A stretch of DNA of 32,248 bases from Bacteroidota bacterium (lineage in GTDB: Bacteria; Bacteroidota; Ignavibacteria; Kapaibacteriales; UBA2268), in the NCBI GenBank assembly GCA_024278075.1, contig JAJRTW010000045.1, forward strand, positions 1 to 32,248, in the 5' to 3' direction. Below, piece by piece: positions 2,818-24,227 of this stretch. A program made the position numbers and the translations under genes. Below the pieces are notes generated by a model that was not told the DNA's origin, searched no databases, and saw nothing but the letters and a program-made list of their open reading frames with translations. Position 1 is the stretch's first letter. Each line of letters begins with the position of its first letter.

Positions 2818-3400
2818 GATTCAGTTAATATATTAGAATTATTCGCATTCGCATCCAAGGCTATAAATCAAAGGTTAAGAATATGGCCTATGAGGATAAA
2901 AAAATACTCGTTGAAAGTAATTTACCCGGATAATCTATGCTGCAATATATAATATAATGAAATAACAAATCTTATCAAAGCATGGAGATTCAATGATTCG
3001 ACTCTCAGCATGAAAAAACAGGTATTTCTACTGAAACAATATATCCGGAATTATTTCTATTTTTATTTTATTATTTTTAATTCAATTTAATATTAAATCT
3101 TTTTCATTTTTTTTTGTAACTTCTATCCTATTGATTATCACAAGCATATAGATTCATAAATTAATATGCACAGCCTAAGGAATAATCTTCCCCACACGCC
3201 CTATTTCTATGCTGTTATTTGGGTTCCATGAATATCAACGAGATATTATTTAGTTTTGTGGAAAACCATATTATTTCTATATTACTATTATTGTTAATTT
3301 ACCATACCTGATTCAACTATATTATGAGCAGATTTTAATATTCTACTTAAGAATTATCATAAATAATTTATTTGATTATTAATTCTACAGGAGGAATTGT
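2818..3400. other. AT-rich intergenic region between divergent genes
   Basis: This stretch of roughly 580 bp separates the divergently transcribed GAF/GGDEF gene and the DUF1800 gene. It contains homopolymeric A/T tracts and no supported gene. A TAGTTTTG box at 3251-3258 resembles a Bacteroidota -7 element but has no TTG at the expected spacing. The 15-mer TTACCATACCTGATT at 3299-3313 recurs in the terminator of the downstream operon. Confidence 0.5.
3389..3396 (+). promoter_or_regulatory. Strong Shine-Dalgarno site of the DUF1800 gene
   Basis: AGGAGGAA lies 4 nt before the ATG at 3401 and fixes that start. Strong Shine-Dalgarno sites are uncommon in this window, so the operon is probably well translated. 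Confidence 0.7.
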
Positions 3401-5014
3401 ATGAAACGTCGTGACTTTTTTGGAATAGGCAATTCGAAAGCTGAAGTTGAGCGGGAATATGATAACCAACCGCTTTCAACGGCAGCACTCGATAAACTTA
3501 CCACACCGCTGACAAGGCAACAGGCCATTCATTTGCTGCGAAGGGTTACTTTCGCCCCAACGCCCGAGCAAATCGATAGCTTCACCGGCCTTACTCCCGA
3601 TGAAGCAATTGCACAAATATTGGGGCCGAACGACCATCCTCTGCCGGAGCCGTCTGCTGCCATTCAGAATTGGATGGACACACAGGAAGAGAATCCATTG
3701 ACTGTTGGCAATCAACTTATCCGGGCGGAAATCGAAGGCCGCTTGCGCACTCGCTATTTCCAGTTTGCCGATTGGTGGCTCGACCTTATGAGAGAGGAAA
3801 CTATGCCGGCAACAGAAAAACTGACTCTGTTCTGGTCTTCGGTATGGTGCATTAACTTTAATTACGATACGCTTGCACTATTGCCACCCGCGCTGCTTTA
3901 TAGAAACAATCAAACGCTAAGAAGTAACAGGTATGGCGATTATAAGAAGTTCGCCGAGGATATTGCAATGGACGGTGCTATGAATATGTACCAAAGTATG
4001 TACTATAATACTAAAAATGCCCCTAATGAAAATTTCGCCAGAGAATTGATGGAGCTTTTTTCGATGGGTACGCACAACCTGAAAACGGGCGAAGCTAATT
4101 ACTCCGAAGGCGACATTCAGGAAAGCACCCGAACACTGACCGGGTGGAAAGCAGCAGCATACGAATATGATCCTAAGCCCAAGGGAGAATTCAAGGTCTA
4201 TTTCCTGCCGAATCTTCACGATACCAATGCAAAGACTTTTATGAATCAAACGATTCCGGCTCGCGACCCTGAAACTGAGAATACCGAGCAGCAGGTACTG
4301 GATGAAGAAATCCGAAACGGAATATTAAGGATTATGTTCGAGGAGCGCTCCGAAGCTATCGCATATTTTCTATGCTCGAAAATCTATCGCTTTTTCGTAT
4401 ATAGCAATCAAGGTGCAATCGATTGGGACTTCGTTGGCGAGCTTGCCCAAATATTTATCGACAACAATTTCACGTTGAGGCCTGTTTTCGAAGCACTATT
4501 CACCAGTGAGTATTTCTTCGACGAATCAATTAGGGGCATTCAAATAAAGACACCTCCCGAGTACATCGTCGGACTCGAAAGAGCACTTGGAGTGGACTAT
4601 GCAAAGGCTCAGGAAGCTGTCGTAAATTTAGAGCAAATACTCTACAACCCGCCGAACGTTGCCGGATGGGATGCTTATAGAACCTGGATTTCTACGAATA
4701 CCTATCCCCTGCGCGTCAAATACTGTCGCGGCATATTGGAAGCAGCAGACAATCCTGGCCTGGTCGCATTTGCAAAGAAATTCGCTGGCAGCGATGACAT
4801 TGATACTTTAACAGATGCACTTGTTGAATATTTCTTGCCTGTCCCGATAGCGGCAGAACGTACACAGCGGTTTAAGCAAGCTATCCTCGATGGTGCCGGC
4901 ACCACCGAAGGCGAGTGGGGAGGTTTGATGGCAGCTAATGACCCGAATGCAGGCGAAGGCATTCGCGCTTTAATTGAAGAGTTGATTTTATCACCAGATT
5001 TTAATTTATCCTAA
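3401..5014 (+). CDS. DUF1800 family protein
   Basis: The 537-residue protein belongs to the DUF1800 family, whose biochemical function is not established. Diagnostic segments are LLRRVTFAPTPEQIDSF (45-61), NENFARELMELFSMG (about 208-222) and YSEGDIQESTRTLTGW (about 234-249), all close to family consensus. DUF1800 genes are typically encoded next to DUF1501 genes, as here: the next gene begins 12 nt downstream and its Shine-Dalgarno overlaps this stop. The N-terminus MKRRDFF has the twin arginine of a Tat motif, but no hydrophobic stretch follows and there is no obvious signal peptide or T9SS tail. It may be carried out with its DUF1501 partner or stay inside the cell. Family assignment is secure; role and location are inference. 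Confidence 0.92.
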   Translation: MKRRDFFGIGNSKAEVEREYDNQPLSTAALDKLTTPLTRQQAIHLLRRVTFAPTPEQIDSFTGLTPDEAIAQILGPNDHPLPEPSAAIQNWMDTQEENPLTVGNQLIRAEIEGRLRTRYFQFADWWLDLMREETMPATEKLTLFWSSVWCINFNYDTLALLPPALLYRNNQTLRSNRYGDYKKFAEDIAMDGAMNMYQSMYYNTKNAPNENFARELMELFSMGTHNLKTGEANYSEGDIQESTRTLTGWKAAAYEYDPKPKGEFKVYFLPNLHDTNAKTFMNQTIPARDPETENTEQQVLDEEIRNGILRIMFEERSEAIAYFLCSKIYRFFVYSNQGAIDWDFVGELAQIFIDNNFTLRPVFEALFTSEYFFDESIRGIQIKTPPEYIVGLERALGVDYAKAQEAVVNLEQILYNPPNVAGWDAYRTWISTNTYPLRVKYCRGILEAADNPGLVAFAKKFAGSDDIDTLTDALVEYFLPVPIAAERTQRFKQAILDGAGTTEGEWGGLMAANDPNAGEGIRALIEELILSPDFNLS

Positions 5015-5020
5015 AGGAGG
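5014..5020 (+). promoter_or_regulatory. Shine-Dalgarno of the DUF1501 gene overlapping the upstream stop
   Basis: AAGGAGG begins at the last base of the DUF1800 stop codon and sits 6 nt before ATG 5027. This is strong evidence for translational coupling within a two-gene operon. Confidence 0.75.
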
Positions 5021-5026
5021 CTGAAA

Positions 5027-6616
5027 ATGAAAAGAAGAAATTTTATTAAATCAACAGCAGCAGTTTCAGCCGGAGCAGCATTTGCACCTTATATACTGAA
5101 AGGAATTCCTCAGAAAAAAGTGCCTATGGAGTCGCTTGATTTTATCAACAGCGATACGATATTCATTTATATTGAACTGCTTGGCGGTAATGATGGATTG
5201 AACACAGTTATCCCGTTGGCTGACGAAGCCCGGTATATGGAGTTAAGGCCAACAGTACATATTACCCGCGATGATGCCGTCAGGTTTTCGGATTCAGATG
5301 TATATTTCCATCCTTCAATAGTTGAGAATATTCACCGCGATGGAATTCTTGGGCTTTTGGACCGCGGCAACCTTGCGGTTGTGGAGGGTGTCGGATATGA
5401 CAATCCTTCGCTTTCGCACTTTTCCTCCCAGAAAATCTGGCTCAGCGGCATCAACAGCAAGGATCCAAGAGATCCCAGACTGCAGGAAGGTTGGCTGGGA
5501 AGATATCTCTTAAGCAAGTTGCCCGACTATCCAACTATAATCCCCGATCATCCTTTGGCAATTGCATTGGGCGGCAATACTCCTTTGCTGTTTAAAAGTG
5601 CAATGGGTCACATGGGCATTTCGCTCACAGACCCCGAAGAATTCTACGAAAAAGGAAAAGGGCTGTCGCCGGTTGATCCTGCACTAACAGGTACGGATAC
5701 TTATGATAATGAATATAATTTTATACATACGATGGCCAGGCAGTCTCAGCAGTATTCCGAGGAGGTATTTAACGCTTATGAAGCTGGAAAGGATAAATTG
5801 CAGGTTCCCTATAGCGATGGGCTGGCACAGAAATTCAAATTAATCTCTACTTTAATTGCAGGCGGATTAAAAACTAAAGTATATTTCATCAATCAGAGTT
5901 TTTACGATTCACACGCACAGCAATTTGAGGATGATCCACGCAAAGGTCAGCACCCAACTCTGCTCAGCGACATAGCTACCGGAATTTCCGAATTTATGGA
6001 CGATGCCATAAAGCAGGGTTTTGCCGATAGAGTTGTTGGAATGACAACATCGGAATTTGGCAGAAGGGCGCATGACAATGGCAGCCGCGGCACCGACCAC
6101 GGAACTTCATCGAATCTGTTCATGTTTGGCTCCGACAAATATGTGAATGCCGGCGCCCATGGCCAGCCGCCCAACCTTAATGACCTCGAGAATGGCAACT
6201 TAAGGCATGAATTCGACTTCCGCCGAACTTTCGCCAACGTGCTTAATGCCTGGTTTGGCGCAGAGCAAGAGGAAATCAACCAGCTATTTGGCGAGCCGAT
6301 CGACCCTATGTCGGTAATAAATCCATGGGTAACAAGCGTCGAGGACAAGCTGGCTGGCACCACAAGCGGAAAGCTAAGTATTCATCCTAATCCGTCAATG
6401 GGGACAGCCAACCTGACATTTGAGCTGAAGGCTCCGGCGAATGTGGACATTTATATATTCAGGAATGACGGCAGATTAGAGCAAAAAGTCAGATCGGGAA
6501 GACTCGAAGCCGGCGTCCATAATTATCCATTAAATGTTGCAAAATCAGGAAGTTATAATTGTGCCGTAATAGTAAACGGCAGAAGGAATCTGGCAAAATT
6601 TAGTGTAATCAGGTAA
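5027..6616 (+). CDS. DUF1501 family protein with Tat-like signal and T9SS sorting domain
   Basis: The 529-residue DUF1501 protein belongs to the alkaline-phosphatase/sulfatase-like superfamily. The N-terminus MKRRNFIKSTAAVSAGAAFA matches the Tat consensus RRxFIK followed by a mildly hydrophobic Ala-rich stretch. Family hallmarks are ELLGGNDGLNTVIP (about 50-63), YDSHAQQF with a downstream histidine (about 290-305), TSEFGRR (about 340-346) and GTDHGT (about 355-360). From about residue 445 a typical T9SS type A C-terminal domain follows: KLSIHPNPSMGTANLTFE, a beta-rich middle, and a final NLAKFSVIR. The protein should therefore cross the inner membrane, possibly folded, and be placed on the cell surface. 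It is the second gene of an operon with DUF1800 and ends in a hairpin terminator. The enzymatic substrate is unknown. Confidence 0.93.
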   Translation: MKRRNFIKSTAAVSAGAAFAPYILKGIPQKKVPMESLDFINSDTIFIYIELLGGNDGLNTVIPLADEARYMELRPTVHITRDDAVRFSDSDVYFHPSIVENIHRDGILGLLDRGNLAVVEGVGYDNPSLSHFSSQKIWLSGINSKDPRDPRLQEGWLGRYLLSKLPDYPTIIPDHPLAIALGGNTPLLFKSAMGHMGISLTDPEEFYEKGKGLSPVDPALTGTDTYDNEYNFIHTMARQSQQYSEEVFNAYEAGKDKLQVPYSDGLAQKFKLISTLIAGGLKTKVYFINQSFYDSHAQQFEDDPRKGQHPTLLSDIATGISEFMDDAIKQGFADRVVGMTTSEFGRRAHDNGSRGTDHGTSSNLFMFGSDKYVNAGAHGQPPNLNDLENGNLRHEFDFRRTFANVLNAWFGAEQEEINQLFGEPIDPMSVINPWVTSVEDKLAGTTSGKLSIHPNPSMGTANLTFELKAPANVDIYIFRNDGRLEQKVRSGRLEAGVHNYPLNVAKSGSYNCAVIVNGRRNLAKFSVIR

Positions 6617-6642: not shown

Positions 6643-7150
6643 CATCAATTCAGCGAGCGTCGTGTAGCCATCCAATATCATTATTGAGATTGCAGCACTT
6701 CGCTTGCTTTTTTATTAATTTATGATTTTTATTAATTTACGATATGTCTTCAGTAATGTACGGTTAAAAAATGAATCGTTCCAAATACTTGCCGATATTC
6801 AATGTACTGTCATCCTGAGCCCTTCGGCAGTTTATCCTGAGCGAAGTCGAAGGACTCAGGATAAGCTATGTCGAAGGATCCAGTGTTTACGGCTCATTTG
6901 GCAGTATTAAGATGGATTCATCACTACGCCATAAATGGCTTCGTTCTGAATGACGCGCTTTAAATATAATATTTCACTAATTTAAAAATCGCATCCATAA
7001 TAGCACAATATAGGCCAAAACGGAGTTTAATGCTGCAATTATCACAAATTGGCTGCTTTTACACCGGACACAACTGTTTAGTTATCAATGATCTTACTTA
7101 TAGCCTAAAAATGTGACAAAAAACAGGAAAAAGGATTTGCTATGAAAATA
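6643..7150. other. Intergenic region with repeat remnant between convergent genes
   Basis: The gap lies between the end of the DUF1501 operon and the 3' end of the sigma-factor gene. It holds the dispersed repeat at 6809-6954. The rest is AT-rich without a supported gene. The short open frame around 6722-6910 translates the repeat itself and is not a gene. Confidence 0.55.
6809..6954. repeat. Dispersed element bounded by GTCATCC and GAATGAC
   Basis: The element begins GTCATCCTGAGC and ends CTGAATGAC, giving short imperfect terminal inverted repeats. Its interior contains CCTGAGCGAAGTCGAAGGA and TCGAAGGATCCAGT. The segment from TCCAGT through CTCATTTGGC to GATTC aligns with the shorter element at 24551-24634. 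It is non-coding and looks like a non-autonomous mobile-element family. Confidence 0.6.
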
Positions 7151-14138: not shown

Positions 14139-14201
14139 TTGACATTGAATATGAATTGTGCTATTAGAATATCAGAGTTTGGCAATAGACGAAAAAAGAA
14201 T

Positions 14202-14759
14202 ATGACAGAATTCACAAAAATAAAATATGACAGCGGATTGAATAATTGCTCCCGAATAAGTTCGGGTTTTATGTTTATTGTTCTGCAGCTAATCATCATT
14301 ATTTGTTTCCAACTTGCCGGCAGCGATTTATTTTCTCAGAATTATAAATATCCATACCTGAATTATGATTCTTCCACGAAAACCTATAAGTTCCAAATAC
14401 CTGATATATTAAGGCCTAAGCAAGATGATGGCATGATATTTGATAGTTCCTTAAGAGGTAGCAAAAGTAGAAATAGAGTGCTTGAAAACTCAGATACGGC
14501 CAAAAATCGCATAGTGAATTTGTGGTATGCCAATGATGAACTCAATGTGAAAATTCTTCTTGATAATGAAAAAAGCCATATTGAAATATTTGTTATAAAC
14601 CTGCTTGGTAAAAAGGTTTTGCCCGTTTATAGCGGCCCTGCAAAACCGAAAGAAGAAATTTATACTGAAGTTGCCTCAACGTTGCCGCAAGGAGTTTATC
14701 TGTGTATGTTGCAGGGAAAGAACTTCCGGCATGGAAGGAAATTTATAGTTTCGAGGTAA
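14202..14759 (+). CDS. Very short T9SS cargo-like protein
   Basis: The favoured ATG at 14202 gives about 185 residues. Alternatives in frame are ATG 14151 and ATG 14271; the last places MFIVLQLIIIICFQ as an immediate signal peptide. After a hydrophobic signal ending near DLFSQ there are about 60 polar residues of no recognised domain. The last 80 or so residues look like a T9SS type A sorting domain: IEIFVINLLGKKVLPVY, then STLPQGVYLCMLQ and the closing HGRKFIVSR. The mature protein is thus little more than a sorting domain. The PorV-like gene starts 5 nt after its stop, so the two are probably co-transcribed. It could be a small surface protein or a remnant of a larger cargo gene. Confidence 0.7.
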   Translation: MTEFTKIKYDSGLNNCSRISSGFMFIVLQLIIIICFQLAGSDLFSQNYKYPYLNYDSSTKTYKFQIPDILRPKQDDGMIFDSSLRGSKSRNRVLENSDTAKNRIVNLWYANDELNVKILLDNEKSHIEIFVINLLGKKVLPVYSGPAKPKEEIYTEVASTLPQGVYLCMLQGKNFRHGRKFIVSR

Positions 14760-14763
14760 ATAA

Positions 14764-15882
14764 ATGTATATTATTCGACAATCCGAACCTGAATTTCAGG
14801 ATTTACTATATGATACGAATGTTTTGTACACCAAAAGAATTTATGGAATAATAATTAAGATACTTATCTATGCAAGCCTGTTTTTAGCAGGCTTATCGTT
14901 TCAATTATATTCACAATCAACCGGCGGCGGATATGCCGAATCGTATTTATACAGGAACGTAGGTGCCAGGGCTGTTGCCATGGCCGGTGCCTACACCGCA
15001 ATTGTGAATGAGCCCGGGGCAATATTCTACAACCCTTCGGGTTTGGGCTTTTTTGCGAACCAGCCGATGGTTGCTACCACATTCTCTCCGATTGGGTTTG
15101 GCCGCACACACGCATCGATGGCCTGGGGGCAAACAGTAGATGAAAATATCGGCGTCGGGTTTGGGATTAACAGCTACTCGTCGGGCGCATTCCAGGGGCG
15201 CGACGTGCGGGGAAACAAAACTGTTGATTTGCAGTCCTGGCAATATTCCCTTACCGGTTCGGCAGCCTATAGAATTGAATCGGCAAGTATCGGCGCTTCG
15301 GTAAAATATCTGCGAAACCAGGTTTCCGGCACCAATACTTCCGCCGATGGTTTCGCACTCGATATTGGAACTAAATTTAATGTGATGGATTTGTTCTCCG
15401 TTGGGATGGCTGTAAATAATATTTCGGGCATGATGATGTGGAACACAGCCGATGAGGAGCAGGAGTTCCTGCCTTATTCCGTCCGAGCCGGCATAGCTAT
15501 GGAATTCGGGTTAAACGAGGAATCCCGCACAACCCGTTCGACAATTACCGGCGAGCTGGAGAATGTTTATGTGCCCGCCACGAGGTATGTGCTTGTAGCT
15601 TTGGATGCTATACTGACTCAGTTCGAGATGTCGCCGAGCATTGTTTTGGGTGTTGAGGTTTCGGCCCACGAACTTCTGGCATTCCGCGGCGGGATTGCAA
15701 TATATGGCGAAGATATGGGGCAGCCGAAGATTTTCCCAATGACAACCTGGGGTGGTGGAATTTCACTTAGGCCCGAACTTGACGGCCTTCCGTTTAAAAC
15801 TCACCTGGACTATACTATTTCGAACGAATATATCACCAACAGTGGAATTGGCCACCACATATCACTATTGTTCGAATTCTAA
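14764..15882 (+). CDS. PorV/PorQ-family outer-membrane protein
   Basis: The 372-residue predicted outer-membrane beta-barrel belongs to the PorV/PorQ (UPF0164-like) group. Members of this group act in type IX secretion as shuttles or anchors for cargo. The family signature near the mature N-terminus is clear: GARAVAMAGAYTAIVNEPGA followed by IFYNPSGLG (about 66-94). The rest alternates amphipathic strands and ends in ISLLFEF, an aromatic-terminated last strand typical of outer-membrane barrels. A signal-like segment (about 30-50, ending LYSQS) is preceded by an unusually long polar stretch, so a TTG start at 14824 is a plausible alternative. It follows the short T9SS cargo gene almost without gap, which supports a shared role in secretion. 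Confidence 0.88.
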   Translation: MYIIRQSEPEFQDLLYDTNVLYTKRIYGIIIKILIYASLFLAGLSFQLYSQSTGGGYAESYLYRNVGARAVAMAGAYTAIVNEPGAIFYNPSGLGFFANQPMVATTFSPIGFGRTHASMAWGQTVDENIGVGFGINSYSSGAFQGRDVRGNKTVDLQSWQYSLTGSAAYRIESASIGASVKYLRNQVSGTNTSADGFALDIGTKFNVMDLFSVGMAVNNISGMMMWNTADEEQEFLPYSVRAGIAMEFGLNEESRTTRSTITGELENVYVPATRYVLVALDAILTQFEMSPSIVLGVEVSAHELLAFRGGIAIYGEDMGQPKIFPMTTWGGGISLRPELDGLPFKTHLDYTISNEYITNSGIGHHISLLFEF

Positions 15883-19491: not shown

Positions 19492-19556
19492 ATTAAAGAT
19501 AATTTATTTCTCTTGATAAATAACTTTTTATGTACCATTAATTAATGGAGTGCTTA

Positions 19557-22500
19557 ATGAAAAGGTTTTTTCTACTAATCGCCATCGTTTTCTGCCTGGT
19601 TGGGACATTGTCCTATGCCCAGGGCGATGACATTCTCCGAAGAAGTGAGATGTACGAACCTCCCACATTCGGACCAATTCCGTCGAGTTTCCCGCAGAGG
19701 TTTACCGAGATCGGCCAAAACCCGACTCAGCCTCAGATTTCGACAGGCTATTATTTCGTCGACAGTGATGACGACGCCCCTGATTATTGGCGTCCGACCC
19801 CTGAAATCATCGATACGTTAACGGAACCAACGCTATGGCGTAGGATTGTTCAAGGCCCGCGTATTCTTCCGAAGGAATACTGGGATGACAACCCGCGTGA
19901 AGGGCATCGCTTCTTCCACAACCCTGCGAAACAGGGTGTAGGTGTTGTTGACTTTTTTGAACATGGCGCAACTACGGCTGTTGACTCTACGGACAACGCT
20001 ATAGCAGGCCCAATACCAATCGGGTTCGGATTCTATTTTAACGGGCTTCGTTATGATAGTTTCTATGTAACAACAAACGGCCTTATTGCCCTGACAAACA
20101 GGCGTTATTTCTATAACTCAAATGGAGATCGCTCGATTCCAACCGGTGGAGCTACTTGCTATGATCCTATGAGTATGGACTGGTTTGTTCGCGCAAGGGT
20201 CGGCGATGGCCTTACCGATGCGAATGATGATAACTTTGGCTACACAGTATCTGTACTGGGAAATGCCGCCGGTAGTTACCTTGGTGGTATCAGGACTCCG
20301 AACGGCCCTTTGAATGGGCTGAATCCCTCTCATAGAGCAGCAGTTATTGCACCTTTCTGGGGCGACAACCATTTGTCTCAATATTCAACTGAAATTAACC
20401 AACCGGATGATTGGGGCAAATGCTTCTTCAAACGCTCCAATGCGGCCGACAAACTCATTATTTATTATGTTAACATTGCACCGGTCGGGCTAAAAGCAAC
20501 TCCATCAGGAATGTATACCGCCCAGGCAAACTTAAGGCGCGGCGAATCCAATTATATTTCAGCAAACGCCCAGGTTATCCTCGATCGTACCGATAGCTCT
20601 GTTACCATCGTTTATGAAAGGTTCGACGGTGTTGCAATTGTGAATAACCGCGCTCAGACGGCTATGACAATTTTCCGCTATAACACGACTTGTGGTGTTC
20701 GCGGATTTGCACGCCATGTAAACTACGGACAACCCGGCGGGCCGAACTATCCCTGGGATACGGAATATGAACAGTTTACACACTATTTCCATAAATATGC
20801 TAATCCGTATGTAAACTATCCTCATAACCAATTGGCTATTAAATTCAAACAATGGCAGAACTCATTAAGGGTTGTTGACATTCAGTACATAATTAGGAAG
20901 CCTGATGAAAATGCCAGTTTGGACTTTACCGATATCGTACCGTCGACCAGAGTTAATGACTATGAATTATTAGCCGGCGAAGAAAGAATCGGTGCAATTC
21001 AGCCAGTGGTTCTGATACAAAACCTGACTAATGAAATTCAGGGCCCAACAGGAGTGAACTTTGTGCCCCAGGACTTCAATTTCCGTGCAAGGTTTAGAAT
21101 TATCAACTTAGCCACGGAAAGAATTATTTATAGCAGATTGGTTCCTATTGACAGCACTTGTCTTGCCACTCCGGATGCCACGTCGGAAAATTGTACCGGC
21201 GACCCTGATGTAAAGGTAAGACTATCAACAGTAACAGTTAAGAATGGTGACTATACGGCAGCTCCGAAAGATTTCCCCGGCCAAGAGGGATATAACGGAA
21301 TACCGCCTTACGAATTCGTACAGGTCTATTTTCCGCCATTCGAGCCGAATGAATTCGTGGAAAACCATATTGGCCGAATGCGAGCCTTTATTATCGCAGA
21401 CCCAACTAACCCTTCAACAGGCGAAGGGGTTGGCGATGAATGGCCATTCGATGATACGTCAAGTGTAAGATTATTCGTTATGAGAAGGCTTGACAGATTT
21501 AATGAGGATATTACAGAATTTCACTTTGTTGAAAGAGTAGCAATGCCTTCGGTTTTGAAATGGGTAAATATAGATGCTGAAGTTGTTACGGGCGATGATG
21601 TATCGCACCATCCTTTGCCACCGCGTGGCGAATATGCAGCCAGGAATAATGAGAATTATACATTGACATCGCCGGTTATCCGTATGACTCGTAGGACACT
21701 TACTGGCCAAGAACCAGCAAAATCACCCGGCGGTGACGAATTAAGGTCATTCCCAATCAATATGCGCAATAAATACGATGCGGTTATTTCATTGTCTGTT
21801 CAGAGAACCGCTGCAGACGATGATTGGGAAAGAGGCTGGAGTGATCAGCAATTGATCGGAGCCGAGCCTAGGTCGGTTCTTAATTCTAATGTGTTCAATG
21901 TTTGGACACGAAACCGCAATGCTGCTTCATACAGGCCGGACGAGTTAAGGGTCGAAATAGCACAGCCAAGCCCTGATGGAATCAGATATATCACAAATAT
22001 TGATGATAAGAGATGGCAAAACCATCCGAGGCGTGAAGGTGCCAAACCCGTGACAGATGTGCCGGCATTGACTATATATGGCGCTGGCGGCTATATGACC
22101 GGATTTTTAGAGGCAGACAAGGACTCTTCGTTGTCATTGCCAGCAGCCGGCCAGTTAAATGCCCTTCGCCCGAATCTTTATGACGATGGTATTGACTGGG
22201 TATACAAAAGATATTTCATCGCTATTCCCGATACATTTATTAGAGCTGAGAACGAAGGCGCTAAGAACTTCAGGTTCAGGTTGAAAATTCACGCGACTAA
22301 CGACAAGAAATGTATTGTTTGTATACCTGATGATGATGATGCCTACTTTGTTGACAACATTAGGCTGTTGTTCTATTCAAAGGAAGCAACAGACATCGGC
22401 GTTACATCAGTGATGCTTGACTGGCCGTATACGATGGCACCAGCTTCACAGGCAACCAACATCCCGATAAGAGTTAGATTGAGCAATAATACAAGCAACG

Positions 22501-24227
22501 ACGCACCTTCTTATATAATTACGACTGCTATTTGGAGGAAAAGCGAGTTTAGGGATTTAACGAAAATAATTTATTGTCGTTCAAAAGTTATGTCGAGCCA
22601 TCCGGGTACACGAGAACTTCCAATGGATATGCCTGCATGGAATGCCCGTAAGGCCGGTCCCGGTGAATACATTCTCGAAGCAGTAGTTTATGTGCCGGGC
22701 GGCGATCTTGAAGAATTGAATGACACTACTTTCAAAGAAATAACAATCAGATTTGGCGATGCATTCGCTTATGATCCCGTAGACAACCCACAAAATAATG
22801 TTCCCGAAGCAGCATTCTCCAACACACCAGGCAGAGGCCTGAACATGTTTGGATTTGCTTATGGCGCCAGCGGCAATGACAGAGGGCCAAGGGAAACTTA
22901 TAACGAAGACGTATTCGGCGCCGGGTATGTCGGTGGCAGTGGTTCCGGCCGGATTGCTGCGAAATTCGAATTGATGAGATCTGATACGATTTATGGTTTC
23001 CGGGTTTTCTTCGGAACATTGAACCAGGCTTGGGATGATATTTCACTGTCAGTTTTCACCGATGTGGGCGGGCAACAGCCTGGTACCCAAATCCCCGGTT
23101 CGAATATTTGGAGGCAGCGTGGATTTGACGATCTTAGAAATGATTACTTCTGGGGCGAATACATGACATACGCTTATGATGGCGATCCTTTGATTCTTCC
23201 TTCGGGAACATATTGGGTAGCAATCACCCAGTTGGGCGAGACTGGCCTTGAACTTGGCGCTTCCAAATCACGTGTTGGTATGAGAACTACGAATATCTTT
23301 ATTCCCCCTCCAACCGGCCTTGGCGGCCCAACCGGCGGCGGTGGCTACTCTCTTATGATTGAGAAAACATTCAGAAAGTATGTCGGGAATAACTTGATTA
23401 ATAAGAACTTCTTTGCCCTTGAAAATTCAGCCGGAAACGGCACGTGGCTGGAATTTATGCCATCGGTCGGCAACCCGGCTTATGCTCACTTGCACCACTT
23501 TGGTATTTCTCCGGCGGATTTCACTACTGCTACACTCTCACGCGGTACATGGATCCCGATGATACGCCCATACCTTGGTGAAAGGTCATATGAAAACCCT
23601 GTTTATTTAACAGACAACTGTATTCATATTCCGATTGAACTGTCGTACTTCACCGGTGAAGTTCGCACTAATGGTATTGACCTTGAGTGGGAAACAGCAT
23701 CCGAAGAAAACAATTACGGCTTCTATGTAGAAAAACGTGAATTCAACAGGGATGTTGAAAACGAATGGGATGCAATTGGATTTGTTCCCGGCAGTAATAA
23801 TTCTAAAGTTGCTAAGAAGTATAACTTTACCGATAACGATGTTGTATTGAGCAGAACTTATCAATATCGCCTGCGCCAGGTTGATTTCGATGGTACTTAT
23901 GACTGTACTTCATCAGGAATTGTTACGCTTAAATTCGGCGAGTATGTACCTTTGGTATTAGAACAAAACGGGCCTAACCCCGCTAATGAGTCTACTACTT
24001 TCTGGTTTCACCTTCCGACGGGCGGAGATGTTTCCCTTGAAGTATCCGACATCTTTGGCAATGTTGTTAAAACATTTAAGCAAAACTTTGCTGCCGGAGA
24101 TAGAAGGAGTATTATATGGGATAATTGTACCGATAACAATGGTATGATGCTCCCGAGTGGCACTTACATCTACAAGCTTACAGCCGGTGATGAAACTGCT
24201 ACACGCAAGATGACAATTGTACGTTAA
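19557..24227 (+). CDS. Giant T9SS-secreted surface/extracellular protein
   Basis: The favoured start is ATG 19557, giving about 1556 residues: GGAG lies 6 nt before it and the signal peptide MKRFFLLIAIVFCLVGTLSYAQ begins there. An upstream ATG at 19545 would add four residues. The mature region is beta-rich, with many Asp, Asn, Pro and aromatic residues, and I recognise no named catalytic domain. About 1357-1460 carries the FN3-like stretch that often precedes T9SS tails (IPIELSYFTGEVRTNGIDLE). The last 90 residues are a FlgD-like/T9SS type A sorting domain: EQNGPNPANESTTFWFHL, then LEVSDIFGNVVKTF and the final TRKMTIVR. It should be exported by Sec and the type IX system. A CIVC motif followed by a run of Asp occurs near residue 920. 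A strong terminator follows. A structural or adhesive role is plausible but unproven. Confidence 0.9.
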   Translation: MKRFFLLIAIVFCLVGTLSYAQGDDILRRSEMYEPPTFGPIPSSFPQRFTEIGQNPTQPQISTGYYFVDSDDDAPDYWRPTPEIIDTLTEPTLWRRIVQGPRILPKEYWDDNPREGHRFFHNPAKQGVGVVDFFEHGATTAVDSTDNAIAGPIPIGFGFYFNGLRYDSFYVTTNGLIALTNRRYFYNSNGDRSIPTGGATCYDPMSMDWFVRARVGDGLTDANDDNFGYTVSVLGNAAGSYLGGIRTPNGPLNGLNPSHRAAVIAPFWGDNHLSQYSTEINQPDDWGKCFFKRSNAADKLIIYYVNIAPVGLKATPSGMYTAQANLRRGESNYISANAQVILDRTDSSVTIVYERFDGVAIVNNRAQTAMTIFRYNTTCGVRGFARHVNYGQPGGPNYPWDTEYEQFTHYFHKYANPYVNYPHNQLAIKFKQWQNSLRVVDIQYIIRKPDENASLDFTDIVPSTRVNDYELLAGEERIGAIQPVVLIQNLTNEIQGPTGVNFVPQDFNFRARFRIINLATERIIYSRLVPIDSTCLATPDATSENCTGDPDVKVRLSTVTVKNGDYTAAPKDFPGQEGYNGIPPYEFVQVYFPPFEPNEFVENHIGRMRAFIIADPTNPSTGEGVGDEWPFDDTSSVRLFVMRRLDRFNEDITEFHFVERVAMPSVLKWVNIDAEVVTGDDVSHHPLPPRGEYAARNNENYTLTSPVIRMTRRTLTGQEPAKSPGGDELRSFPINMRNKYDAVISLSVQRTAADDDWERGWSDQQLIGAEPRSVLNSNVFNVWTRNRNAASYRPDELRVEIAQPSPDGIRYITNIDDKRWQNHPRREGAKPVTDVPALTIYGAGGYMTGFLEADKDSSLSLPAAGQLNALRPNLYDDGIDWVYKRYFIAIPDTFIRAENEGAKNFRFRLKIHATNDKKCIVCIPDDDDAYFVDNIRLLFYSKEATDIGVTSVMLDWPYTMAPASQATNIPIRVRLSNNTSNDAPSYIITTAIWRKSEFRDLTKIIYCRSKVMSSHPGTRELPMDMPAWNARKAGPGEYILEAVVYVPGGDLEELNDTTFKEITIRFGDAFAYDPVDNPQNNVPEAAFSNTPGRGLNMFGFAYGASGNDRGPRETYNEDVFGAGYVGGSGSGRIAAKFELMRSDTIYGFRVFFGTLNQAWDDISLSVFTDVGGQQPGTQIPGSNIWRQRGFDDLRNDYFWGEYMTYAYDGDPLILPSGTYWVAITQLGETGLELGASKSRVGMRTTNIFIPPPTGLGGPTGGGGYSLMIEKTFRKYVGNNLINKNFFALENSAGNGTWLEFMPSVGNPAYAHLHHFGISPADFTTATLSRGTWIPMIRPYLGERSYENPVYLTDNCIHIPIELSYFTGEVRTNGIDLEWETASEENNYGFYVEKREFNRDVENEWDAIGFVPGSNNSKVAKKYNFTDNDVVLSRTYQYRLRQVDFDGTYDCTSSGIVTLKFGEYVPLVLEQNGPNPANESTTFWFHLPTGGDVSLEVSDIFGNVVKTFKQNFAAGDRRSIIWDNCTDNNGMMLPSGTYIYKLTAGDETATRKMTIVR

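What the first reader, a model, noticed from the sequence alone, without database searches (positions are those of the whole stretch)
3401..6616. DUF1800/DUF1501 pair: possible Tat export followed by T9SS surface display, with a hitchhiking partner
The DUF1501 product has a Tat-like RRNFIKS start and a T9SS tail. Its DUF1800 partner starts MKRRDFF but lacks a hydrophobic signal core and a T9SS tail. The genes are translationally coupled. A folded complex might cross through Tat and then be secreted through the type IX system on the tail of one subunit. That route is not established for these families, whose function is unknown.
Basis: partly seen in the sequence, partly recalled or inferred. 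Interest (0 to 1): 0.5.

Follow-up and report, generated by a model that had tools for sequence, protein, structure and literature searches.

The report
Tat-to-T9SS cargo with hitchhiking partner
Two neighbouring genes encode a pair of proteins of unknown function that probably fold together inside the cell and leave it as one unit, using export tags carried by only one of the two, which would combine two protein-export machines in a way I found no report of.

Summary
The window encodes DUF1800 (3401-5014) and, 12 nt downstream, DUF1501 (5027-6616). DUF1501 has a twin-arginine start with a weak hydrophobic core and a T9SS-type tail. DUF1800 has neither, and an in-frame stop 21 nt before its ATG rules out a missed signal. 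'Translationally coupled' is not shown.

The pattern is widespread in Bacteroidota. The tail is on 120 of 155 distinct DUF1501 genes surveyed and on no DUF1800. RRx-hydrophobic starts 153 of 159 DUF1501 rows. By contrast, of 39 other tailed proteins sampled from this genome, 35 look Sec and none Tat. Some DUF1800 homologues have their own Sec signal, but none of their readable partners has the tail (0 of 9). The two families co-inherit as cognate pairs, and an AlphaFold model of the read-through chain has pTM 0.82.

Best reading: a folded DUF1800-DUF1501 pair hitchhikes through Tat; T9SS then displays DUF1501, probably with its partner. DUF1501 has the alkaline-phosphatase-superfamily fold. 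No export was tested. The window protein lacks a clear signal-peptidase site, and a few tailed DUF1501 lack the RR. My searches found no report of a Tat-exported T9SS cargo.

The parts
3401..5014 (+). DUF1800 gene (537 aa), no export signal core and no T9SS tail; probable passenger
   Evidence: PF08811 273.4 bits; N-terminus read; model pLDDT 92.6
3389..3394 (+). Shine-Dalgarno AGGAGG of DUF1800
   Evidence: sequence
3401..3421 (+). MKRRDFF start of DUF1800: twin-arginine-like peptide without a hydrophobic core
   Evidence: similar M..RR starts in 25 of 40 own-family DUF1800 rows
5015..5020 (+). Shine-Dalgarno AGGAGG of DUF1501, directly after the DUF1800 stop (5012-5014)
   Evidence: sequence
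5027..6616 (+). DUF1501 gene (529 aa), carrier of both export signals
   Evidence: PF07394 48.2 bits
5027..5113 (+). Tat-type signal of DUF1501 (about residues 1-29); cleavage site unclear
   Evidence: PF10518 21.8 bits, cut-off 22.7; hydropathy; cleavage motif check
5144..6334 (+). alkaline-phosphatase-superfamily fold of DUF1501 (residues 40-436)
   Evidence: VIA Z 16.0 to 6f2y_A over model residues 582-978
6374..6613 (+). T9SS type A-like C-terminal domain (about residues 450-529)
   Evidence: TIGR04183 18.5 bits, cut-off 23; Foldseek match to mirolase C-terminal domain 8qb1_A

Best explanation
DUF1800 and DUF1501 fold and pair in the cytoplasm. The pair crosses the inner membrane as a folded complex through the Tat translocase, guided by the twin-arginine signal of DUF1501 alone (hitchhiker export). 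The C-terminal domain of DUF1501 then directs it to the type IX secretion system, which displays DUF1501, most likely with DUF1800 still bound, on the cell surface. There the alkaline-phosphatase-superfamily domain would cleave a phosphate or sulfate ester, with DUF1800 as its obligate helical partner. Shown here by computation: the gene pair, the two signals and their distribution, co-inheritance, predicted folds, and the Tat and T9SS genes. Inferred: complex formation in vivo, Tat dependence, joint passage through T9SS, catalysis. Rough odds: working Tat signal 0.9, working T9SS tail 0.85, complex 0.75, co-export by Tat 0.65, joint crossing of the outer membrane 0.45.
For: Signals: RRx-hydrophobic in 153 of 159 DUF1501 rows, 5 more with RK or KR; Tat by a fixed rule in 141 of 159, against 17 of 766 other ORFs. 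Tail on 120 of 155 distinct DUF1501 genes (29 without, 6 cut off or masked) and on no DUF1800; in 80 named loci on 46 of 65 readable paired DUF1501 and 0 of 87 DUF1800 ORFs. Contrast: of 39 other tailed proteins of this genome 35 Sec, 0 Tat, 4 undecided; of 31 intact tailed ORFs near surveyed pairs 26 Sec, 0 Tat. Machinery: TatC, SprA, PorU in the genome. DUF1800 without own signal in 203 of 222 classifiable rows, Sec in 13, full Tat in 6, so relatives of DUF1800 can be exported. Complex: tree distances r 0.927 over 138 pairs; swapping partners within 30 multi-pair genomes lowers r from 0.925 to a mean of 0.223, 0 of 500 reach it; read-through model pTM 0.82. Of 126 genomes with DUF1800, 123 have SprA over cut-off; the three without (G002, G201, G269) have tail-less DUF1501 (L134, L176, L188).
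Against: No export was measured. The window's DUF1501 lacks a clear [AVS]xA cleavage site, as do most own-family members (13 of 40 have one; for example 11 of 14, 7 of 8 and 7 of 8 in f3, f2 and f4, but 0 of 3 and 0 of 2 in f44 and f25); an uncut signal would hold the protein in the inner membrane. Some tailed DUF1501 lack RR: L233 (NRHDF), L264 (SRAEF), and RK variants in L140, L147, L159, L175. Tat-like DUF1501 also pairs with Sec-type DUF1800 (9 rows), so Tat need not be there for the partner. Many signal-less DUF1800 go with tail-less DUF1501 (36 of 182 readable rows). Signal and tail states are clumped on the tree and the independent-pair test has no power. The pTM comes from a joined chain with 24 paired rows, without PAE. 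The tail fold also resembles an unrelated beta-sandwich (alpha2-macroglobulin domain 2p9r ranks above 8qb1). No gene fusion of the two was found. A passage of PMC4452313 reads signal peptides in planctomycete-type DUF1501 clusters as Sec.
Confidence: 0.5

Rival explanations
1. The pair hitchhikes through Tat but separates in the periplasm: DUF1800 stays there and only DUF1501 is displayed by T9SS.
For: Tail-less pairs with signal-less DUF1800 exist (36 rows), so a periplasmic DUF1800 is a possible end state. No passenger without a tail is described for T9SS in the passages read.
Against: The partners co-inherit tightly and are modelled as one body, and the tail is kept on DUF1501 in the own family (34 of 34 readable). 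Nothing here separates this from the main reading directly.
Confidence: 0.2
2. DUF1800 is a cytoplasmic chaperone or maturation factor of DUF1501, in the manner of Tat-substrate chaperones; only DUF1501 is exported.
For: DUF1800 lacks a signal in 203 of 222 classifiable rows and is mostly helical; it pairs strictly with a Tat-like protein.
Against: 19 of 222 DUF1800 rows have Sec or full Tat signals, so the family is not confined to the cytoplasm. No chaperone fold was matched, which is weak evidence.
Confidence: 0.18
3. DUF1501 is in fact exported by Sec; the RR is incidental.
For: Some tailed DUF1501 have RK, RH or RA in place of RR; T9SS cargo is described as Sec-exported (PMC9251779, passages). 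Signal peptides of planctomycete-type DUF1501 clusters were read as Sec (PMC4452313, passages).
Against: R3, R4 and F6 are invariant in 41 relatives. Core hydropathy is low: median 1.62 over 135 distinct DUF1501 N-termini against 2.89 for 35 other tailed proteins of the genome (these 35 had been picked by the rule as Sec, which needs at least 2.0, so the contrast is partly circular).
Confidence: 0.07
4. The two proteins are only co-regulated neighbours and do not form a complex.
For: No fusion of the two was found; no interaction data exist here.
Against: Partner-swap control and joint model; both genes in 154 of 161 loci.
Confidence: 0.05

Closest known systems
Tat hitchhiker complexes: HybOC and PaoABC of E. 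coli (PMC4273604, abstract and passages)
   Same: One subunit carries the Tat signal; partners without any signal are exported in complex with it.
   Different: Those stay inside the outer membrane; here the signal-bearing subunit also has a T9SS tail, and the proteins are unrelated.
Tat-then-T2SS exoproteins of Pseudomonas aeruginosa such as PlcH and PlcN (PMC4899797, passages)
   Same: Two-step route, Tat across the inner membrane and then an outer-membrane system for folded proteins; phosphoesterases among the cargo.
   Different: Type II, not type IX; no C-terminal sorting domain.
T9SS type A cargo (gingipains and others; PMC4804311 and PMC9251779, passages)
   Same: C-terminal beta-sandwich sorting domain; T9SS genes in the genome.
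   Different: Described cargo enters by Sec; here the N-terminus is Tat-like and a tail-less partner may ride along.
DUF1800-DUF1501 genes beside bacterial chitin synthases (PMC5122149, passages)
   Same: The same two families, adjacent; DUF1501 there predicted as Tat-exported by PRED-TAT.
   Different: The passages read concern other bacteria and mention no T9SS tail; among the window genes that I scanned I saw no chitin synthase.

Membership tests
Tat substrate (DUF1501) | twin-arginine motif followed by a weakly hydrophobic core | tested here: met
   MKRRNFIK plus core of 1.53; PF10518 21.8 bits, just under cut-off 22.7; R3, R4, F6 invariant in 41 relatives
Tat substrate (DUF1501) | signal-peptidase site after the core | tested here: inconclusive
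   no [AVS]xA site in the window protein by a simple motif; 13 of 40 own-family rows have one
Tat substrate (DUF1501) | Tat translocase in the genome | tested here: met
   TatC 221.7 bits; TatA was not searched
Tat substrate (DUF1501) | export depends on TatC | not testable with these tools
   needs a tatC mutant
T9SS type A cargo (DUF1501) | C-terminal sorting domain | tested here: met
   window protein under the TIGR04183 cut-off (18.5 against 23 bits), but 34 of 41 relatives match TIGR04183 at E up to 0.05 and the fold matches 8qb1_A, TM 0.61 by target
T9SS type A cargo (DUF1501) | T9SS machinery in the genome | tested here: met
   SprA 928.9 bits, PorU 863.6 bits
T9SS type A cargo (DUF1501) | Sec signal, as in described cargo | tested here: not met
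   Tat-like instead; so it is a variant rather than a typical cargo
T9SS type A cargo (DUF1501) | secretion lost in a T9SS mutant | not testable with these tools
   needs a mutant
Tat hitchhiker complex | partner has no export signal of its own | tested here: met
   DUF1800 N-terminus fixed by the upstream stop, hydropathy 0.27
Tat hitchhiker complex | the two form a stable complex before export | tested here: inconclusive
   pTM 0.82 for the joined chain and cognate co-inheritance favour it; no PAE, no experiment
Tat hitchhiker complex | partner export needs the signal-bearing subunit | not testable with these tools
   needs deletion of DUF1501
DUF1800 (PF08811) | match over the family cut-off | tested here: met
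   273.4 against 26.1 bits
DUF1501 (PF07394) | match over the family cut-off | tested here: met
   48.2 against 27 bits, mainly residues 285-387
alkaline phosphatase superfamily (DUF1501 domain) | fold | tested here: met
   Z 16.0 to 6f2y_A, rmsd 4.0, 253 residues; Foldseek best E 2.8e-4
alkaline phosphatase superfamily (DUF1501 domain) | metal ligands and nucleophile in place | tested here: inconclusive
   D56, S130, H131, D294, H296, E343, D357, H358 are invariant in 41 relatives; no superposition could be inspected
Tat-substrate chaperone (TorD/DmsD type, recalled) for DUF1800 | fold | tested here: inconclusive
   no usable match at all for the DUF1800 model, which excludes nothing

The most novel reading that the evidence does not exclude
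A preassembled folded heterodimer crosses both membranes of Bacteroidota cells in relay, Tat and then the T9SS translocon, with all targeting information on one subunit. A further layer, which I rate at about 0.1, is that the RR-x-hydrophobic start of DUF1800, kept without a hydrophobic core in front of a variable linker, is a working second Tat docking or proofreading element rather than a relic.
Probability: 0.42. Interest if true: 0.75.

Novelty: new variant of a known kind. Interest (0 to 1): 0.58.

Why it matters
T9SS cargo is described as entering by Sec and as carrying its own tail. A widespread, conserved cargo with a Tat-type signal and a tail-less partner would mean that T9SS accepts folded, Tat-delivered proteins and perhaps whole complexes. 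It offers a defined pair in named isolates (for example the tailed pairs of Aquimarina amphilecti, L217, and Pseudarcicella hirudinis, L215) with which to test whether T9SS can carry a passenger without a tail. It also gives two large families of unknown function a testable cell location, and for DUF1501 an enzyme superfamily.

Tried and rejected
The first Pfam call failed because I had joined ORFs of different frames; repeated with other ORFs. Two mixed alignments of joined and single proteins were misaligned at the junction (checks 49, 52) and dropped; A6 passed the same check and was used. Fold of DUF1800: Foldseek's best E was 0.64 and VIA's best Z 4.1 over 81 residues; no usable relative, which does not show a new fold. 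Sequence search of solved structures: nothing credible for either protein. Fusion of the two genes: none found. TatC co-occurrence is uninformative (295 of 296 genomes). The independent-pair test had no power. My RR_noH label can also catch RR inside the DUF1800 domain start (HLLRR), so I use the M..RR start counts. Corrections before the counts: L056 and L081 set to no signal, L110 set to Sec, one mis-paired L166 row dropped, rows with under 330 aligned residues dropped. Named and unnamed loci overlap in part (for example L242 and L131, L216 and L122, judged from contig lengths), so rows are not all independent. The two 'Sec with CTD' rows are, as I judge them, L081 (spurious upstream start) and the mis-paired L166 row; they are counted accordingly. 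The genome searches list only part of their matches and I took 160 stretches, so the survey is a sample. The 39 control proteins were picked by me from the list, not drawn at random. Neighbour counts by single-query BLAST (laminin-G gene downstream in 8 of 36, OmpA gene upstream in 7 of 34 own-family loci with room) are lower than by clustering.
Full report
1. What is there. The window (contig C273 of an unnamed 3.74-Mb genome) encodes DUF1800 at 3401-5014 and DUF1501 at 5027-6616. Each has its own Shine-Dalgarno AGGAGG; the gap is 12 nt. The start of DUF1800 is fixed: an in-frame TAA lies 21 nt upstream with no start codon between. The genome has one match each to DUF1800 and DUF1501, one TatC, SprA and PorU, and at least 150 matches to the T9SS tail profile (150 of 193 candidates were scored).

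2. The two signals of DUF1501. The start MKRRNFIKSTAAVSAGAAFAPYILKG has the twin arginine and a weak hydrophobic core (1.53, Kyte-Doolittle over 12 residues). As a control I read 39 other tailed proteins of the same genome, picked by me from the list: 35 start Sec-like, none Tat-like, 4 undecided. All 35 are more hydrophobic than any of 40 own-family DUF1501, partly by construction, because the rule asks Sec for at least 2.0. Of 31 intact tailed ORFs near the surveyed pairs, 26 are Sec, none Tat, 5 undecided. The tail is under the TIGR04183 cut-off in the window protein (18.5 against 23 bits), but 34 of 41 relatives match that family, a profile grown from this tail finds tails on many other proteins, and the modelled tail matches the solved tail of mirolase (8qb1_A, E 9e-3, rmsd 3.6), though an alpha2-macroglobulin domain ranks a little higher.

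3. The survey. DUF1800 occurs in 126 and DUF1501 in 137 of 296 genomes drawn across the phylum, and DUF1800 in 28 of 54 genomes of the own family. I took 160 stretches. With the window, 154 of 161 hold both genes. Of 166 DUF1800 rows, 157 have DUF1501 next on the same strand, 2 show the reverse order at over 2 kb (the neighbouring pair's gene), 7 have none nearby. DUF1501 is Tat by a fixed rule in 141 of 159 rows; 153 of 159 have RRx-hydrophobic, 5 RK or KR, and 1 has a doubtful start. The rule calls Tat in 17 of 766 other ORFs. The tail is on 120 of 155 distinct DUF1501 genes: own family 34 of 39 (4 cut off or masked at the end, 1 broken by masked bases), order 38 of 40 (1 cut off), class 14 of 14, rest of phylum 34 of 62 (1 cut off). 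No DUF1800 has it. In 80 named loci the tail is on 46 of 65 readable paired DUF1501 and on 0 of 87 DUF1800 ORFs.

4. Signals of DUF1800. Both sets together, 237 rows: 203 without own signal, 13 Sec, 6 full Tat, 15 undecided (corrections under Tried and rejected). Sec-type DUF1800 are mostly a longer form (about 650-760 aa) whose readable partners are short, Tat-like and tail-less; three more lie in records labelled Planctomycetota (L225), Alphaproteobacteria (L238) and Bordetella (L249). Where the tail could be read, it goes with Sec-type DUF1800 in 0 of 9 rows, with Tat-type in 6 of 6, with signal-less in 146 of 182. So members of the DUF1800 family can be exported proteins, and no classifiable tailed pair has a DUF1800 that would arrive by Sec. 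These states are clumped on the tree, and the independent-pair test is powerless. Against the reading: a few tailed DUF1501 lack RR (L233, L264; RK in L140, L147, L159, L175).

5. The odd start of DUF1800. M..RR-x-hydrophobic begins 25 of 40 own-family, 21 of 44 order, 7 of 14 class and 9 of 64 other rows, against 10 of 766 other ORFs. In 23 aligned own-family sequences, chosen for having RR, the motif is mostly RR, then D, E, N or Q, then F or L and a further hydrophobic residue, followed by a linker of varying length and letters. Among rows without own signal it is seen only with tailed partners (56 of 146 against 0 of 36), but it changes at least 26 times on the tree, so it is not indispensable. 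Since a few relatives have a full Tat signal there (L124, L127, L130, L131, L202), the plain reading is a Tat signal that lost its core; why the RR stays is unexplained.

6. Do they form a complex? Tree distances of the two families correlate at 0.927 over 138 pairs and at 0.912 for 52 within-genome comparisons of paralogues. Swapping partners inside 30 multi-pair genomes (69 pairs) lowers the correlation from 0.925 to 0.223 on average, at most 0.658 in 500 draws. The two genes share a frame, so the read-through chain (TAA as Q, 1071 residues, 47 rows of which 24 paired) could be modelled as one: pLDDT 86.0, pTM 0.82. Under pLDDT 50 are only the DUF1800 start, three short loops, the linker with the DUF1501 signal, and scattered residues. 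With roughly 505, 400 and 85 ordered residues in the three domains, my arithmetic is that 0.82 needs DUF1800 and DUF1501 to be placed relative to each other. No PAE or coordinates were returned. DUF1800 alone gives pLDDT 92.6 and pTM 0.91, mostly helical.

7. What they may do. The DUF1501 domain aligns with the alkaline phosphatase superfamily (VIA Z 16.0 to NPP3, rmsd 4.0, 253 residues; Foldseek best E 2.8e-4). Invariant D56, D294, H296, E343, D357 and H358 (41 relatives) suggest a metal site, not checked by superposition. DUF1800 has no usable match in solved structures; 11 of 37 relatives weakly match PSD2/DUF1585. In relatives the pair often lies beside surface genes: a cluster of 14 upstream genes (11 in the own family), OmpA-type in the two annotated, and a cluster of 18 mostly downstream large genes (16 downstream; 14 in the own family), with laminin-G and ASH-type domains in the two annotated. 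The window genome has the laminin-G gene elsewhere (C8), in a frame with a T9SS tail match. I favour a surface phospho- or sulfoesterase acting on an envelope or extracellular polymer; this last step is a guess.

8. Cleavage. A simple [AVS]xA motif after the core is absent in the window protein and present in 13 of 40 own-family rows, but in 11 of 14, 7 of 8 and 7 of 8 in families f3, f2 and f4 of the same order. Either own-family signals are cut elsewhere or some stay uncut, which would conflict with T9SS export. This is the weakest point of the reading.

9. Consistency with the machinery. Of 126 genomes with DUF1800, 123 have SprA over cut-off; of the other 170 genomes, 105 have it. The three without (G002, G201, G269) have tail-less DUF1501 (L134, L176, L188). 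Relatedness was not corrected for. TatC is in 295 of 296 genomes, so it discriminates nothing.

10. Literature. Searches for DUF1501/DUF1800 by name or accession and for Tat with type IX secretion showed no title or abstract start reporting a Tat-exported T9SS cargo; the held library lacks most subscription papers. I saw only passages, no whole paper: PMC5122149 (pairs beside chitin synthases; DUF1501 predicted Tat), PMC4452313 (signal peptides in DUF1501 clusters, read as Sec), PMC9251779 and PMC4804311 (T9SS after Sec), PMC4273604 (hitchhiker export), PMC4899797 (Tat then T2SS), PMC6946804 (both COGs among abundant SAR202 genes), and PMC5445135, PMC9127263, PMC5121618, PMC6549377, PMC6653060 and PMC7563939, where the passages shown do not report a Tat-T9SS route.

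11. Verdict. Real, widespread and coherent. Tat-then-T9SS for DUF1501 is well supported at the level of signals; hitchhiking of DUF1800 is a good inference; its joint passage through the outer membrane is open.

Noticed in passing
L032:2254-2712 (own genome, contig C219): Directly downstream of tatC lies a small ORF (about 150 aa) with a Sec-like start and a T9SS tail.
   Followed up: no
L063:8124-11492, L077:8053-11424; own genome C8:23050-26400: A large laminin-G/ASH-domain gene often follows the pair in relatives; in the window genome its homologue (46% identity) lies on another contig.
   Followed up: partly
L085:6585-8585, L067:3286-4878: An OmpA-family gene often precedes the pair in relatives.
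   Followed up: partly
L084:523-3414 and other f3 loci: In family f3 a roughly 1000-aa gene follows the pair in 8 loci, 6 with a T9SS tail; the one annotated has a CBM_4_9 carbohydrate-binding domain.
   Followed up: partly
L110, L116: Long Sec-type DUF1800 (744 and 756 aa) with no DUF1501 found in the stretch taken.
   Followed up: no
L124, L127, L130 (family f14): DUF1800 with a complete Tat-like signal beside a tailed DUF1501: both partners may target Tat.
   Followed up: partly
window 6820-6890: Intergenic inverted-repeat-like sequence (cctgag...tcgaagg, seen by eye), possibly a dispersed repeat.
   Followed up: no
window 14139-14759, 14764-15882, 19545-24227: A PorV/PorQ-family protein (14764-15882) directly follows an ORF whose C-terminus matches the T9SS tail profile; a 1560-aa tailed protein lies further on.
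   Followed up: no
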